Assembly (NCBI RefSeq): GCF_018448935.1
Contig: NZ_RCWC01000010.1
Location: 62,001-126,000 of the forward strand
Length of the DNA stretch: 64,000 nucleotides
Reading direction: 5' to 3'
Origin: Photorhabdus noenieputensis
Lineage (GTDB): Bacteria; Pseudomonadota; Gammaproteobacteria; Enterobacterales; Enterobacteriaceae
In this document: positions 27,440 to 50,942 of the stretch, piece after piece
Layout: each line of letters begins with the position of its first letter
Numbering within the stretch: the first letter of the stretch is position 1
Notes under the pieces: generated by a model
What the model was told of the DNA's origin: nothing
The model's input: the letters and a program-made list of their open reading frames with translations, nothing else
Database searches by the model: none
Made by a program: the position numbers and the translations under genes

Positions 27440-27649
27440 TTATGCTGTAGTGACGTTTGCCGCAGAAGGACCTTTCTGACCGTCCTGAATTTCAAACTCA
27501 ACTTTTTGGCCTTCCGCCAGAGTTTTAAAACCTTCGCTCTGAATAGCGCTAAAATGTACAAACACATCTTTGCTACCATCAGCAGGAGTAATAAAACCAA
27601 AACCTTTTGATTCGTTGAACCACTTTACAGTACCAGTGATTTTTGCCAT
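27440..27649 (-). CDS. cspE: Cold-shock-like protein (CspE/CspC type)
   Basis: This 69-residue protein is a single OB-fold cold-shock domain with the RNP1 motif SKGFGFITP (about residues 14-22) and RNP2 DVFVHFSAI (about 28-36). It binds single-stranded RNA/DNA and acts as an RNA chaperone and antiterminator. The ATG at 27649 follows AAAGGA; the open frame further upstream is just 5' leader. Proximity to pagP (as in E. coli, where cspE neighbours crcA/pagP) favours CspE over CspC, but the protein sequence alone does not decide between paralogues. Confidence 0.9.
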
Positions 27650-28249
27650 TTTAAGAATTTCCTTTGGATCACTTAATTCTAATTCGCCGTTTCGGCGCAA
27701 CATAAAAACTAGAGCAAGTTACTGCTATTAACAGAACCGTATAACAGAACCGTACCTCGTTTACCCGAACGATTTATCACATATTCTTAATATGATGGCA
27801 AGCCATTTTTTATCAGCTATGGAGCTAACGCACATATTTAAAATTCTTAACAACATTATTGTTTAACATAGCTGCAAAAATTTGAAAATCCAAGGTTATC
27901 CTAATTAGCTTACAGTTTATCCACTCAACAAAACCCCACATAACATAAATAATACTAATTTATTTTGCCTATCTTATTATTAGATTTTTTATATCTATAG
28001 TATGTTCATAGAGACCAATCTCTACTGTTTGGGTGAAAGAAAAAGTCAACACATTCCCAATATTAGTCAACTAAAATATCAGTATTAAATATACCCAGTT
28101 AATACCTATCACATCTTAATATTAATTTTTCGTTTAACTTTTATTGAAAATAGCAAGAGTAGAATTCCTGAATTTAGATGTTTGTCATATTTTACGTGAT
28201 GCACAGGATCTTCCCAATTTATGTCGTCGGGAAATTGGAGCAATAAATA
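27650..28249. other. Divergent cspE/pagP intergenic region
   Basis: About 600 bases with no gene I can support. The left part is the cspE 5' leader and promoter; the right part carries the candidate PhoP-controlled promoter of pagP. Confidence 0.5.
28131..28165 (+). promoter_or_regulatory. Candidate PhoP-activated promoter of pagP
   Basis: CGTTTA (28131-28136), 5 bases, then TATTGA (28142-28147) resembles the PhoP direct repeat (T/G)GTTTA-N5-(T/G)GTTTA, matching 5/6 and 4/6. A TAGAAT -10 box begins 12 bases later (28160-28165), the spacing typical of PhoP-dependent promoters. pagP is a classical PhoP target in Salmonella, and PhoPQ is encoded in this window. Confidence 0.5.
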
Positions 28250-28873
28250 ATGAAGTTTAATTTAACCGCAGCCTATACCCTATCAGCTACTCTTTTAGTC
28301 TCATCTGGAACAGTGTTTGCAGCAACGGCAGATACCGCTAATAAGTCATTAGCAACGACTGAATCTCATACACCAATCGGTGGTAGCAACAATTCAGGTA
28401 GTTTATGGGAAAAATTCAACAATAATATCGCCCTCACTTGGGATGCACCCAACAATGAACTTTATCTGCCGGTAATTACTTGGCATAACAGACATACCTA
28501 CGATAAAGAGAAAATCGATAGATATAATGAGCGGCCTTGGGGTTTCGGCTATGGGAAATATCGTTACGACGAGGACAATGATTGGCATTCCCTTTATGCA
28601 ATGGCTTTTATGGATTCTCATAACCGTTTGGAACCGATCGTTGGCTATGGATTCCAGAAAATGTGGATACCCGGTAAGTTAGATGGTTTTCGAATGGGAA
28701 TTGGTTTCACTTTAAGCGTTACAGCTCGTCACGATTATTATTATGTCCCTATTCCACTCCCATTACCGTTATTCTCCATAGAATACGATCGGTTATCGCT
28801 GCAAGGGACATATATTCCCGGCACATATAATAATGGTAACGTCCTCTTCGCCTGGCTACGTTGGCAATGGTAA
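28250..28873 (+). CDS. pagP: Lipid A palmitoyltransferase PagP
   Basis: PagP is an outer-membrane beta-barrel enzyme that moves palmitate from phospholipids to lipid A, strengthening the outer membrane against cationic peptides. The 207-residue precursor has a signal peptide (cleavage likely after VFAA, near residue 26). An amphipathic helix region (SLWEKFNNN) follows, then barrel strands with the catalytic residues: His in ITWHNRHTYD and the Asp-Ser pair in MAFMDSHNR. It ends in the aromatic FAWLRWQW typical of barrel proteins. A low-complexity Thr/Asn/Ser stretch after the signal makes it slightly longer than the E. coli protein (186). Confidence 0.93.
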   Translation: MKFNLTAAYTLSATLLVSSGTVFAATADTANKSLATTESHTPIGGSNNSGSLWEKFNNNIALTWDAPNNELYLPVITWHNRHTYDKEKIDRYNERPWGFGYGKYRYDEDNDWHSLYAMAFMDSHNRLEPIVGYGFQKMWIPGKLDGFRMGIGFTLSVTARHDYYYVPIPLPLPLFSIEYDRLSLQGTYIPGTYNNGNVLFAWLRWQW

Positions 28874-28940: not shown

Positions 28941-30320
28941 TTATCCCTGCTCCTGTGCTCTCATTTTATCACGGCGGGAACGAGACATTAAAAACCCGAT
29001 CCATAACACTCCCACCCAGAATGGCATCAAGATGACTGAAATACGGATGCTATCCATCATCAAAATAATGACAAGTATAAAGGCAAGGAAAGCCAGACAC
29101 AGATAATTACCGAATGGATACCAGAATGCCTTAAATGATGGCTCTATTCCCTGTTTAACTTTTTCCGCCCGGAATTTTAAATGCGCCGTACAGATCATGA
29201 CCCAATTAATCACCAACGTTGTTACCACCAGTGCCATCAATAATTCAAATGCTTTACCCGGCATTACATAATTAATCAATACACCAATGGACGTTGCCAA
29301 AGCAGACATGACAATGGCTCTGATAGGCACACCACTCTCATTAACTTTTTTCAGCATCCCAGGAGCATTGCCTTGCTTTGCTAAACCGTACAACATCCGG
29401 CTATTACAATACACACCGCTGTTATAAACGGATAGTGCGGCAGTTAGGACAACAACATTCAGAACGTTAGCCACCCAGAAACTATCCAGGTTGTGAAAAA
29501 TCATAACAAATGGGCTTTCACCTTCAACGACATTACCCCACGGATAAAGCGACAACAACACGGTCAAAGAGCCGATATAGAAAATCAATATCCTGTATAC
29601 CACCTGATTGGTGGCCTTAGGAATGCTGATACGCGGATTTTCCGCTTCTGCTGCGGTAATACCCACCAGTTCCAATCCACCAAAAGAGAACATAATCACA
29701 GCCATTGCCATGATTAGGCTGGTGATGCCATTAGGCATAAAGCCGCCATGTTGCCAAAGGTTAGTAATGCTGGCCTGAGGTCCGCCATTTCCGCTAACTA
29801 ACAAGTAAGCGCCAAACACAATCATACAAATAATAGCGGTCACTTTAATGATGGAAAACCAAAATTCTGTTTCACCATACAATCGGACATTAATTAAATT
29901 TACTGTATTGATTAAGACAAAGAAGATGGTTGCAGAAACCCAGGTTGGAATATCAGGCCACCAGTAGTGGATATACATTCCCACAGCCGTTAATTCAGCC
30001 ATACCGACCAGAGTAAACATCGCCCAGTAATTCCAACCTGATAAAAATCCGGGAAAATCCCCCCAATATTTATACGCAAAATGACTAAACGACCCCGCTA
30101 CAGGCTCCTCGACCACCATCTCTCCTAGCTGACGCATAATCAGAAATGCAATAAAGCCTGCGATAGCGTATCCTAAAATTACGGAGGGACCTGCCATTTT
30201 TATGGTTTGTGCAATACCGAGAAATAACCCAGTCCCGACAGCCCCCCCTAAAGCAATAAGTTGAATATGCCGGTTTTTTAAACCGCGTTTAAGTGTTGAC
30301 CGCTGCGATTGTCCTGCCAT
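28941..30320 (-). CDS. pheP: Aromatic amino acid permease (PheP/AroP family)
   Basis: This 459-residue APC-superfamily transporter has 12 predicted helices. Its start LKRGLKNRHIQLIALGGAVG and the EEPVAGSFSHFAYKYWG segment are shared with E. coli AroP and PheP. Regions such as GWNYWAMFTLVGMAELTA, NLINVRLYGETEFWF, PFVMIFHNLDS and YPFGNYLC are closer to PheP, so phenylalanine is the best guess; tyrosine/tryptophan uptake through an AroP-like range is the alternative. I use the ATG at 30320, which follows AGAGGAC, rather than one 18 bases upstream. A strong hairpin terminates it downstream. Phenylalanine import would feed aromatic secondary metabolism typical of Photorhabdus. Confidence 0.85.
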   Translation of the reverse strand: MAGQSQRSTLKRGLKNRHIQLIALGGAVGTGLFLGIAQTIKMAGPSVILGYAIAGFIAFLIMRQLGEMVVEEPVAGSFSHFAYKYWGDFPGFLSGWNYWAMFTLVGMAELTAVGMYIHYWWPDIPTWVSATIFFVLINTVNLINVRLYGETEFWFSIIKVTAIICMIVFGAYLLVSGNGGPQASITNLWQHGGFMPNGITSLIMAMAVIMFSFGGLELVGITAAEAENPRISIPKATNQVVYRILIFYIGSLTVLLSLYPWGNVVEGESPFVMIFHNLDSFWVANVLNVVVLTAALSVYNSGVYCNSRMLYGLAKQGNAPGMLKKVNESGVPIRAIVMSALATSIGVLINYVMPGKAFELLMALVVTTLVINWVMICTAHLKFRAEKVKQGIEPSFKAFWYPFGNYLCLAFLAFILVIILMMDSIRISVILMPFWVGVLWIGFLMSRSRRDKMRAQEQG

Positions 30321-30489
30321 CTTGTCCTCTTGATGCAACTTCTATCTTGTTATTAGTGGGAAAACAACCGCTTCCCATTATCTGCTTTATTCAAAGCAAA
30401 CAAAACACTAGCTTTAACGGGTGGATATTGAAGATATATGTTAGCACAGATATACGACGGGAAAATGGCTGATGAGTATCAGCAACTAA

Positions 30490-30633
30490 TCAGAAAGGCA
30501 GATATCGAGTCACCGAACAAATACCTGAATCAAACTTTTCCCCTTGATCACAATAGCTATCCAAAGCTAACAGGTACAAGAACAGACATATTCCAAGTAA
30601 TGCTAAGATTGCAATGGTTTTTTTTATGTCCAA
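30490..30633 (-). CDS. mgrB: PhoQ inhibitor peptide MgrB
   Basis: A 47-codon frame starting at TTG encodes a small inner-membrane protein: a short N-terminus, one transmembrane helix (about residues 6-24) and a periplasmic tail CDQGEKFDSGIC plus SVTRYLPF. It aligns with E. coli MgrB (47 residues) without gaps, and Cys16, Cys28 and Cys39 all coincide, as do CDQ, F34 and SGIC. AAGGAAA lies 6 bases before the TTG; no in-frame ATG is available, so ATG-only gene callers miss it. MgrB binds PhoQ and represses its kinase; the periplasmic cysteines make it redox-sensitive. phoPQ is 18 kb away. It is a strong match for such a short protein. Confidence 0.9.
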   Translation of the reverse strand: MDIKKTIAILALLGICLFLYLLALDSYCDQGEKFDSGICSVTRYLPF

Positions 30634-30688
30634 TTCTATTTCCTTTAAGTTCGGTTAGAACGCAATACGTTAAGAATAAAGTTGGAAA

Positions 30689-30712
30689 ATGATATTTTAC
30701 AACAATGAAACA
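30689..30712 (-). promoter_or_regulatory. Candidate PhoP half site and -10 before mgrB
   Basis: On the minus strand TGTTTC (30712-30707) matches a PhoP hexamer in 5 of 6 bases and lies 12 bases before TATCAT (30694-30689), a fair -10. A second hexamer-like TGTAAA follows TGTTTC after 5 bases. The expected upstream hexamer is weak, so this is a tentative call based on mgrB being a known PhoP target. Confidence 0.35.
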
Positions 30713-30947
30713 AGAAAAATATTCATCCTGTGCTTTCATTGCGAAAAAATCGTACCAGCAACAGTATGCATGCTAACAACATATCAGAACACGTTTAAAC
30801 AAATACTAACTATGTGGATTCTATTCACTATAACAAAAAAATCAATTGTCACATTCAGTTACAATCAAATCGTTATGTCAAGGCTTTGTCATCTTTAGAA
30901 AAAGTTGTGTATACTTCCTTTCATTTTCAACCAGAACAAAATTGTTA

Positions 30948-31331
30948 ATGCCACAGGATAATCACTTAGCACTTGTATGCGCTCTCAGCAAATGGATTGA
31001 GAATCACCTTGGCCGGGTAATCCACCTGGAAGAGCTGGCAACTTACTCCGGTTACTCGCTTTGGCACATGCAGAAAATATTCAAGGAAGTCACCGGAATT
31101 TCTCTTGGCAAATATATCCGCCAGCGACGCTTGGCCGGCGCTGTTCATCTTTTAAGAAACAGCTCTTTGCCTATTTTTGATATCGCCTTAGATTTCGGCT
31201 TCGGCTCTCAGTCTCATTTCACTTACATGTTCCGCAAAGAATATGGCATAACGCCCTATGATTTCCGGCAGAATCCAGATATTGAGCTCGAAGTTAAGCT
31301 ACCTCTGCATTTCGCTACCAATTGTTCGTGA
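30948..31331 (+). CDS. AraC-family regulator, MarA/RamA/SoxS-like
   Basis: This 127-residue protein consists only of the AraC-type DNA-binding domain, the size of MarA (127-129) and SoxS. Two helix-turn-helix units are visible: IHLEELATYSGYSLWHMQKI (about residues 24-43) and LPIFDIALDFGFGSQSHFTY (about 73-92), with FRKEYGITPYDFR closing the fold. I use the ATG at 30948; the open frame upstream has no supporting site. Such regulators act as monomers on mar/sox boxes of efflux and porin genes. It could be RamA, MarA or SoxS; the sequence does not decide. mgrB and yddG flank it. Confidence 0.85.
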   Translation: MPQDNHLALVCALSKWIENHLGRVIHLEELATYSGYSLWHMQKIFKEVTGISLGKYIRQRRLAGAVHLLRNSSLPIFDIALDFGFGSQSHFTYMFRKEYGITPYDFRQNPDIELEVKLPLHFATNCS

Positions 31332-33746: not shown

Positions 33747-33883
33747 ATACACCCTATGGATTTCAAGATGCATCGCGACGGCAAGGGAGTGAATCCCCGG
33801 GAGCATAGATAATATAGATAACGATGTGACCGGGGTGAGCGAGTGCAGCCAACAAAGAGGCAACTTGAAAGATGACGGGTATA
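33747..33883 (+). repeat. ERIC element, copy 2
   Basis: About 137 bp with the same termini (CACCCTATGGATTTC ... GATGACGGGTATA) as copy 1. It has the full core GTGAATCCCCGGGAGC and TGACCGGGGTGAGCGAG. It carries a short duplication (ATAGATAATATAGATAAC) in the central hairpin relative to copy 1. Confidence 0.92.
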
Positions 33884-38061: not shown

Positions 38062-38186
38062 ATACCCGTCATCTTTCAAGTCGCCTCTTTGTTGGCTGCA
38101 CTCGCTCACCACAATCACATAGTTTGCTATGCTCCCGGGGACTCACTCCCTTGCCGTCGCGATATATCTTGAAATCTATAGGGTAT
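38062..38186 (-). repeat. ERIC element, copy 3 (reverse)
   Basis: The reverse complement of copies 1 and 2: ATACCCGTCATCTTTCAAG at the left end and AAATCTATAGGGTAT at the right end, with GTTGGCTGCACTCGCTCACC inside. About 125 bp. The core differs in several bases, so it is an older or diverged copy. Confidence 0.9.
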
Positions 38187-48790: not shown

Positions 48791-49459
48791 ATGCGGATAT
48801 TGATCGTTGAAGACAACATGTTACTGCGTCACCATTTAACGGTACAGCTTCGTGATACCGGTCATCTAGTTGATGCTGCGGCAAACGCCAAAGAAGCCGA
48901 TTATTACCTGGTCGAGAGCGAACCCGATATTGCCATTGTTGATCTTGGTTTGCCCGGAGAAGATGGGCTGAGTTTGATCCGCCGCTGGCGCCAAAGAGAT
49001 GAAAAACTCCCCATTCTTGTTCTGACCGCCCGCGAAAGCTGGCAAGAAAAAGTCACGGTTCTTGATGCAGGAGCGGATGATTATGTTACCAAACCCTTTC
49101 ATCTTGAAGAAATTATTGCCCGTATGCAGGCACTCCTACGCCGTAATAATGGGCTGGTTTCTCAGATTATTGAATTTCCACCTTTCAAAATTGATCTGTC
49201 ACGTAAGGAATTAACAGTTTATGGTGGGAACGTCAAACTAACAGCGTTTGAATACCGAATCATTGAAATACTGATGTGTAATAGCGACAAAGTTGTCACT
49301 AAAGAGTCATTAATGCGCCAATTATATCCCGATGCTGAACTGCGCGAAGGCCACTCCATCGATGTTTTAATCGGCCGCTTAAGGAAGAAAATATTAGATA
49401 TCTGGCCCTATGAAGCTATCGTAACTGTTCGTGGTCAGGGCTATCGCTTTGATGTGTAA
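48791..49459 (+). CDS. phoP: Response regulator PhoP
   Basis: PhoP is the OmpR-class regulator of magnesium, acid and antimicrobial-peptide responses, needed for virulence in many enterobacteria. The 222-residue protein has the receiver with [11 protein letters not shown], the phospho-acceptor Asp in [12 protein letters not shown], the conserved Lys in [11 protein letters not shown], and a C-terminal winged helix ending [11 protein letters not shown] use the ATG at 48791, which gives the E. coli-like MRILIVEDN; 45 bases of the open frame upstream are ignored. The 3' end overlaps the phoQ start by 8 bases. Known targets elsewhere include pagP and mgrB, both in this window. Confidence 0.96.
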
Positions 49460-50942
49460 AACTTTCATAGGTAAAAAAGTGCTTAAGCACAAAAAGCAGC
49501 CTTTCTCACTGCGTACCCGGTTTTTAATGGCAACTGCTGCGGTTATTCTTGCCCTTACCATGTCTTACGGCATTGTTGCCATTGTCGGTTATCTGGTCAG
49601 TTTTGATAAAACTGCTTATACACTGCTACGCAGTCAGAGTAACCTATTTTTTAGCCTTGCTCAGTGGAATAATAATAAGCTGGATATCTCAGTACCCCCT
49701 AATTTCACACTGAATAACCCATCATTAGTTCTGATTTATAACAACAAAGGCACCATCCTCTGGCGCCAACGCCATATCCCAAAAGTCGAAAACTCTATTC
49801 CTAGCGAATGGTTAAAAGAAGACGGCTTATATGAGCTGGGTACTGACTTAAAAAGCAGTCGTGACTTGCTAAAAAACTCGGCCAACACACAAGGGCAATT
49901 AGGTAAACTTGATGCACTTGACGAAAATGAAGATAACGAACTAACCCACTCCGTTTCCGTCAACAGATACAGCGCAACAGCTCATTTACCAGCATTAACT
50001 ATTGTAGTCATCGATACCATCCCACAAGATTTACAAAAAGCGATTATGGTGTGGGAATGGTTCGGTTATGTCTTGATTGCCAATCTTATTCTGGTTATCC
50101 CATTGATCTGGCTGGCGGCACATTGGAGCTTACGGCCAATTAAATCGCTTATTCATCAGATCAGTTCGTTAGAAAAAGGTGAACGGGAAAAACTGGATGA
50201 AAATCCACCGACAGAGTTACGGGGGCTAGTTCGCAACCTCAATGTGTTGCTCAATAATGAACGTAACCGCTATACCAAATACCGGACAACACTCGCTGAT
50301 CTAACACACAGCTTGAAAACACCACTGGCTGTTTTGCAATCAACTCTCCGTTCTTTACGTGACAGTAAACAAATGACTATTCAGCAGGCAGAACCTATCA
50401 TGCTGGAACAAATTGGCCGTATTTCTCAGCAGATAGGCTATTATCTACATCGAGCCAGTATGCGCAGTGAACATAGCGCCATTATGCGGAAAGTTTCTTC
50501 TATTCCTGCTTTACTGGATAGCCTGTGTAGCGCTTTAACAAAAGTCTATCAGCGTAAAGGGGTCAGTCTCACGTTAGATGTCTCACCGGAGATCACCTGG
50601 CTTGGTGAGAAAAATGACTTTATGGAAGTCATGGGTAATGTGCTGGAAAACGCCTGTAAATATTGTCTTAAATTTGTTGAGATCTCTGTGGCAATCGATC
50701 ATGATTCGGTCATTATTATTGTCGATGACGATGGTCCTGGAGTGCCAATTGAAAAACGAGAAATGATTTTCCAGCGAGGCCAACGTGTTGATACTTTGAA
50801 GCCCGGTCAAGGGCTAGGATTGTCAATTGCTTCTGAAATTATCGAACAATATAAAGGTGATATCAGTATCAGTGACAGCCCACTTGGTGGTGCCAGAATT
50901 TGCGTTATATTCCGATGCCAGCAAATTAATGATGACGATTAG
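49452..50942 (+). CDS. phoQ: Sensor histidine kinase PhoQ
   Basis: PhoQ senses low divalent cations, acidity and cationic peptides in the periplasm and controls PhoP. It has an N-terminal membrane helix, a periplasmic sensor domain with an acidic cluster ([17 protein letters not shown], about residues 155-171), and a second helix (about 200-222). The cytosolic part has HAMP, H-box [15 protein letters not shown]-box [13 protein letters not shown] and G-box [12 protein letters not shown]. From ATG 49452 it has 496 residues. A GTG at 49479, with AGG upstream, would give 487, closer to E. coli (486), so the exact start is open. MgrB, its inhibitor, is encoded at 30.5 kb. Confidence 0.95.

What the first reader, a model, noticed from the sequence alone, without database searches (positions are those of the whole stretch)
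30490..30633. Hidden mgrB gene with a TTG start
A 47-residue frame aligns gap-free with MgrB, the inhibitor of PhoQ, sharing all three cysteines (16, 28, 39) and CDQ/SGIC. It is easily missed because it starts at TTG and an unrelated ORF covers the other strand. It completes a PhoP-PhoQ-MgrB control circuit in this genome.
Basis: partly seen in the sequence, partly recalled or inferred. Interest (0 to 1): 0.8.

Follow-up and report, generated by a model that had tools for sequence, protein, structure and literature searches.

The report
Photorhabdus mgrB gene, already known
The short reading frame is a genuine mgrB gene, encoding a small membrane protein that restrains the PhoQ sensor; it is ordinary and was already reported in this genus, and its unusual TTG start fits a gene that seldom begins with ATG.

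Summary
Window 30490-30633 (minus strand) is a 47-codon frame with a TTG start and a well-placed ribosome-binding site. It matches MgrB far above curated cut-offs (Pfam 69.7 bits against 27; NCBIfam 73.6 against 40). The genus is Photorhabdus. mgrB is in 12 of 12 held genomes of the genus, with TTG in all 24 loci examined (14 distinct leaders); dN/dS is 0.018/0.186. phoP and phoQ lie 18 kb away in the same window. Two modest additions. At the homologous start codon, 118 of 135 genomes have GTG or TTG and one has ATG. And a PhoP-box-like element with the half-sites of E. coli mgrB ends 162 nt before the TTG, against 47-59 nt in the 46 other genera where the pattern was found. The antisense ORF has no family match and has in-frame stops in 2 of 12 genomes.

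The parts
30490..30633 (-). mgrB, 47 codons, TTG start at 30633
   Evidence: Pfam PF13998 69.7 bits (cut-off 27), NCBIfam NF007635 73.6 bits (cut-off 40); 12 of 12 genus genomes; mean dN 0.018, dS 0.186 over 66 pairs
30641..30645 (-). Shine-Dalgarno-like AAGGA, 7 nt before the TTG
   Evidence: sequence; AAGGA lies 7-8 nt before the TTG in all 12 genus genomes listed
30796..30812 (-). PhoP-box-like TAGTTA-GTATT-TGTTTA, followed after 12 nt by TATGTT, a -10-like hexamer by my reading
   Evidence: both half-sites identical to those upstream of E. coli mgrB; not significant in this sequence taken alone (57 of 200 shuffles score as well)
30634..30795 (-). 162-nt interval between the PhoP-box-like element and the TTG (47-59 nt in the 46 other genera where the pattern was found)
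   Evidence: no Rfam match in 30300-31000; evidence for an RNA structure inconclusive
48791..49459 (+). phoP (ATG at 48791)
   Evidence: NCBIfam NF008078 416.9 bits, cut-off 336; start codon
49431..50942 (+). phoQ; the first listed start is GTG, the true start is probably further in
   Evidence: NCBIfam NF008077 866.6 bits, cut-off 497; PF08918 PhoQ sensor domain E 7.4e-88, the only match in the genome
30438..30692 (+). antisense open frame, most likely not a gene
   Evidence: no Pfam or NCBIfam match; in-frame stops in 2 of 12 genus genomes

Best explanation
This is the Photorhabdus ortholog of mgrB. It makes a 47-residue single-pass inner-membrane protein with a short cytoplasmic N-terminus and a periplasmic tail carrying the C28/C39 pair. 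Active PhoP turns the gene on through an upstream PhoP box. MgrB then binds PhoQ through its transmembrane and periplasmic parts and lowers PhoQ kinase output, closing a negative feedback loop. Translation starts at a TTG with a good Shine-Dalgarno sequence, in keeping with the GTG or TTG found at this codon in most mgrB genes surveyed. Shown here: identity, conservation, the TTG as the only conserved start codon, co-occurrence with phoPQ, and a PhoP-box-like element. Inferred from orthologs: PhoQ inhibition, PhoP control and membrane topology.
For: Profile matches above curated cut-offs. Present in 12 of 12 genus genomes. Purifying selection, dN/dS about 0.1, with 14 of 22 variable columns at third codon positions. 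TTG in all 24 Photorhabdus loci. AraC-type gene, mgrB, permease, pagP and csp gene in the same order in 12 of 12 named Photorhabdus loci. phoP and phoQ in the same window. PhoP-box half-sites identical to E. coli mgrB. The same kind of element stands 47-59 nt before mgrB in 46 of 65 genera. P. laumondii MgrB was among the orthologs tested in E. coli, of which most inhibited PhoQ efficiently (PMC8404706; passages and sections seen).
Against: Seven positions that matter, or may matter, in E. coli MgrB (PMC8404706) differ here: K2 and K3 are D2 and I3 (with K4, K5 next), W20 is Y20, Q22 is L22, F24 is L24, D31 is G31 and W47 is F47. Y20 occurs in orthologs that inhibit strongly. The PhoP-box-like site is not significant in this sequence taken alone (57 of 200 shuffles); a scan of the whole window shows no excess of such sites (36 against 31.3 expected). 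Among 14 distinct leaders, 9 score 10 or 11 of 12 at this place; 3 score 9 of 12 there; in 1 the best score lies elsewhere; in P. asymbiotica an insert pushes the site to the edge of the 300 nt scanned. A 2017 study of the P. luminescens PhoP regulon does not contain 'mgrB' in its main text and reports no conserved PhoP box at the two promoters it discusses, though PhoP bound one of them directly (PMC5333078, passages).
Confidence: 0.96

Rival explanations
1. The frame is an mgrB relic or a divergent copy that no longer restrains PhoQ.
For: Seven positions that matter or may matter in E. coli MgrB differ; identity to an E. coli-like ortholog is only 11 of 47.
Against: dN/dS about 0.1 and no broken copy in 12 of 12 genomes; both periplasmic cysteines, F34 and G37 are kept; P. 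laumondii MgrB is not among the orthologs named as weaker in the text seen (the figure was not seen).
Confidence: 0.03
2. The antisense 84-aa ORF is the real gene and the MgrB frame is a by-product.
For: It is longer and has an ATG start; it has no internal stop in 10 of 12 genus genomes.
Against: No family match, in-frame stops in 2 of 12 genomes, and substitutions that favour the MgrB frame.
Confidence: 0.005
3. MgrB starts elsewhere than at the TTG.
For: Some Photorhabdus have a further in-frame TTG five codons upstream (G008).
Against: In this genome the TTG at 30633 is the only ATG, GTG or TTG between the upstream stop and the transmembrane part; it is conserved in all 24 Photorhabdus loci and has the Shine-Dalgarno spacing.
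Confidence: 0.03

Closest known systems
MgrB of Photorhabdus luminescens subsp. laumondii TTO1 (PMC2789325; P. laumondii MgrB tested in E. coli in PMC8404706)
   Same: Same genus, same gene.
   Different: A different genome; the published alignments were not seen, only text and legends.
MgrB of Escherichia coli
   Same: 47 residues, C16, C28, C39, CDQ, F34 and G37; non-ATG start (GTG in E. coli); upstream half-sites TAGTTA and TGTTTA.
   Different: 11 of 47 residues identical with an E. coli-like ortholog; K2/K3, W20, D31 and W47 replaced; different neighbours (yobH-mgrB-yebO in E. coli); PhoP-box-like element 162 instead of 50 nt before the start.

Membership tests
MgrB (PF13998 / NF007635) | Score above the curated cut-off of the family model | tested here: met
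   69.7 against 27 bits; 73.6 against 40 bits, positions 1-47 of 47
MgrB (PF13998 / NF007635) | Two periplasmic cysteines C28 and C39, needed for activity in E. coli | tested here: met
   Present, and the same in all 12 genus genomes
MgrB (PF13998 / NF007635) | Other residues needed for full activity in E. coli (K2/K3, W20, F24, D31, F34, G37, W47) | tested here: inconclusive
   F34 and G37 kept; W20 is Y as in strongly active orthologs; K2/K3, F24, D31 and W47 differ
MgrB (PF13998 / NF007635) | phoP and phoQ in the same genome | tested here: met
   Both in the window
MgrB (PF13998 / NF007635) | PhoP-controlled promoter | tested here: inconclusive
   PhoP-box-like element with E. coli mgrB half-sites, not significant alone; no binding or expression data
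MgrB (PF13998 / NF007635) | Inhibition of PhoQ | not testable with these tools
   A P. laumondii ortholog was tested in E. coli (PMC8404706)

The most novel reading that the evidence does not exclude
mgrB is held to a low translation rate across the family by a non-ATG start under selection. In Photorhabdus the dose is set further by a promoter moved about 110 nt upstream, giving a long leader. A low, noisy supply of MgrB would then help to set the small fraction of cells with high PhoPQ output that has been described in P. luminescens.
Probability: 0.12. Interest if true: 0.55.

Novelty: already known. Interest (0 to 1): 0.2.

Why it matters
It confirms that PhoPQ in Photorhabdus has its small-protein brake. 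A 2017 study traced a peptide-resistant, virulent minority of P. luminescens cells to PhoPQ, and 'mgrB' does not occur in its main text (PMC5333078, passages), so the brake may be a missing piece there. It also shows that gene finding for mgrB should not ask for ATG, since 118 of 135 genomes have GTG or TTG at the homologous start codon.

Tried and rejected
RNA structure in the leader: left open, not claimed. The hairpin predicted around the Shine-Dalgarno and TTG pairs in 99.4% of cells, but 60 of 500 shuffles do as well, and fold z-scores are -1.41 and -0.99 for two window stretches and from -1.56 to +0.12 for four relatives. Against that, the whole RNAalifold structure of the 12-sequence alignment (50 pairs) beats all 500 shuffles on paired cells, double changes and covariation score. 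But five of its seven pairs with double changes are in one helix that starts between the PhoP-box-like site and the -10-like hexamer, upstream of any transcript that promoter would make; the structure was derived from the same alignment, and the tool warns that relatedness alone can give such results. Rfam gives no match.

Generic PhoP-box consensus in the window: 36 matches against 31.3 expected. The pattern is the published (T/G)GTTTA repeat with 5 nt between (PMC8355897, passages). A sigma-70 scan of 30200-31000 gave 3 sites against 2.7 expected.

Selection on the start codon: not shown. ATG stands at the homologous mgrB codon in 1 of 135 genomes, while phoP starts with ATG in 29 of 30 control loci, the other not parsed by my pattern; these 30 were the best-scoring of 112 genomes with a match. 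But A/G choice at ordinary conserved codons is lopsided too (CAG 54, CAA 8 of 65 genera), so ancestry and base bias are not excluded.

Synteny with E. coli: the neighbours differ.

A slip that I mended: the AraC-type query was taken out of frame; one search repeats it in frame (93.7-100% identity in 12 of 12 loci).

Full report
What is there. The minus strand of 30490-30633 encodes LDIKKTIAILALLGICLFLYLLALDSYCDQGEKFDSGICSVTRYLPF and a stop. The first codon is TTG, and AAGGA lies 7 nt before it. Pfam MgrB matches with 69.7 bits (cut-off 27) and the NCBIfam equivalog model with 73.6 bits (cut-off 40) over all 47 positions. It is the only MgrB match in the genome.

Which organism. The window lies in a 5.36-Mb genome of 233 contigs. 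The genus is therefore Photorhabdus; the species was not determined.

Conservation. All 12 held genomes of the genus carry the gene. They hold 11 distinct coding sequences and 8 distinct proteins; mean dN is 0.018 and mean dS 0.186 over 66 pairs, and 14 of 22 variable columns are third codon positions. The start is TTG in all 12 and in the 12 named loci. My locating pattern contained the TTG, but all 24 loci had been found by other means and none was lost. The 24 loci hold 14 distinct leaders. The AraC-type gene, mgrB, permease, pagP and csp gene occur in this order in all 12 named loci.

The circuit. PhoP is at 48791-49459 and PhoQ within 49431-50942, both above equivalog cut-offs, about 18 kb from mgrB.

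Start codons across the family. Of 295 genomes of the family, 138 have an MgrB match. Three with internal stops or a partial match were left out, which leaves 135 genomes in 65 genera. At the codon homologous to the E. coli start (27 residues before C28, else 28, else 26) 91 have GTG, 27 TTG, 1 ATG and 16 none of these. By genus: 41 only GTG, 15 only TTG, 2 both, 1 ATG and GTG, 6 none. E. coli is annotated with GTG, and a Klebsiella paper numbers mgrB from its GTG start codon (PMC6054975, one passage). I cannot show that the homologous codon is the real start everywhere. 29 of 135 genomes have an in-frame ATG 22-40 codons before C28: three have one directly before the GTG, six have one two codons further in and nothing at the homologous place, and most of the others lie upstream. 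In 49 of 65 genera no sampled genome has one. The phoP control gave ATG in 29 of 30 loci, the last not parsed; the 30 are the best-scoring ones. Whether selection keeps ATG away is only suggested, because A/G choice elsewhere in the gene is lopsided too.

Promoter. Upstream of E. coli mgrB stands TAGTTA-N5-TGTTTA, then 12 nt, then TAGTTT. The window has TAGTTA-N5-TGTTTA, then 12 nt, then TATGTT. A pattern that I wrote after seeing such sites, NNGT[T/G]A-N5-NGTTTA, was applied to 25,020 nt upstream of the 135 genes. It gave 89 matches: 87 end 47-59 nt before the start (87 genomes, 46 genera) and 2 end at 162 nt, both in Photorhabdus (G000 and G009); the third Photorhabdus genome of the survey, G008, has no match. 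100 of the 135 stretches reach only about 147 nt upstream, so distant elements could be missed there. Of 14 distinct Photorhabdus leaders, 9 score 10 or 11 of 12 at this place. In this window's sequence alone 57 of 200 shuffles score as well, and the window as a whole shows no excess of such sites. The case rests on the E. coli match, the spacing and the cross-genus position.

Literature. PMC2789325 (passages and section 9) reports the P. luminescens subsp. laumondii TTO1 homolog, says mgrB is frequently missed in annotation, and found phoP and phoQ in every genome with a candidate mgrB. PMC8404706 (passages, part 1 of section 8, and section 12) tested P. laumondii MgrB on E. coli PhoQ; it is not among the orthologs named as weaker or stronger in the text seen, and the figure was not seen. 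PMC5333078 (passages) describes PhoPQ-driven heterogeneity in P. luminescens; 'mgrB' does not occur in its main text. Searches for mgrB with 'TTG start' and with 'non-ATG' and 'start codon' found no paper in the held library, and with 'GTG start codon' one.

Verdict. The gene is an already known ortholog in this genus. The GTG or TTG starts across the family and the displaced PhoP-box-like element are modest additions.

Noticed in passing
L034 and L013 (P. asymbiotica leader); L026 and L003: A repeat of about 120 nt resembling ERIC (name recalled) lies in the mgrB leader of P. asymbiotica, its end 43 nt before the start, and directly upstream of the PhoP-box-like site in L026/L003. A core motif of it also occurs in the window at 33826-33841 and 38103-38118 (0.01 expected).
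   Followed up: partly
survey genomes of genera g49, g60, g140: No ATG, GTG or TTG at the homologous mgrB start; open frames of 76-103 codons, and in the first genome of each genus the best PhoP-box-like site ends 115 nt upstream.
   Followed up: no
   Followed up: no
window 28250-28873 and 27440-27703: pagP, a lipid A palmitoyltransferase gene, next to a cspC/cspE-type gene, close to mgrB.
   Followed up: no
window 28941-30338: Amino acid permease closest to AroP and PheP but below both curated cut-offs (729.5 against 848; 711.4 against 851).
   Followed up: no
window 30948-31331: SoxS/Rob/MarA-like AraC-family regulator, divergent from mgrB, below the cut-offs of the NCBIfam models listed; 93.7-100% identical in 12 named Photorhabdus loci.
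   Followed up: partly
mgrB leader, alignment A2: The predicted consensus RNA structure shows more double changes than shuffles, five of the seven pairs in a helix that overlaps the presumed promoter; unexplained.
   Followed up: partly
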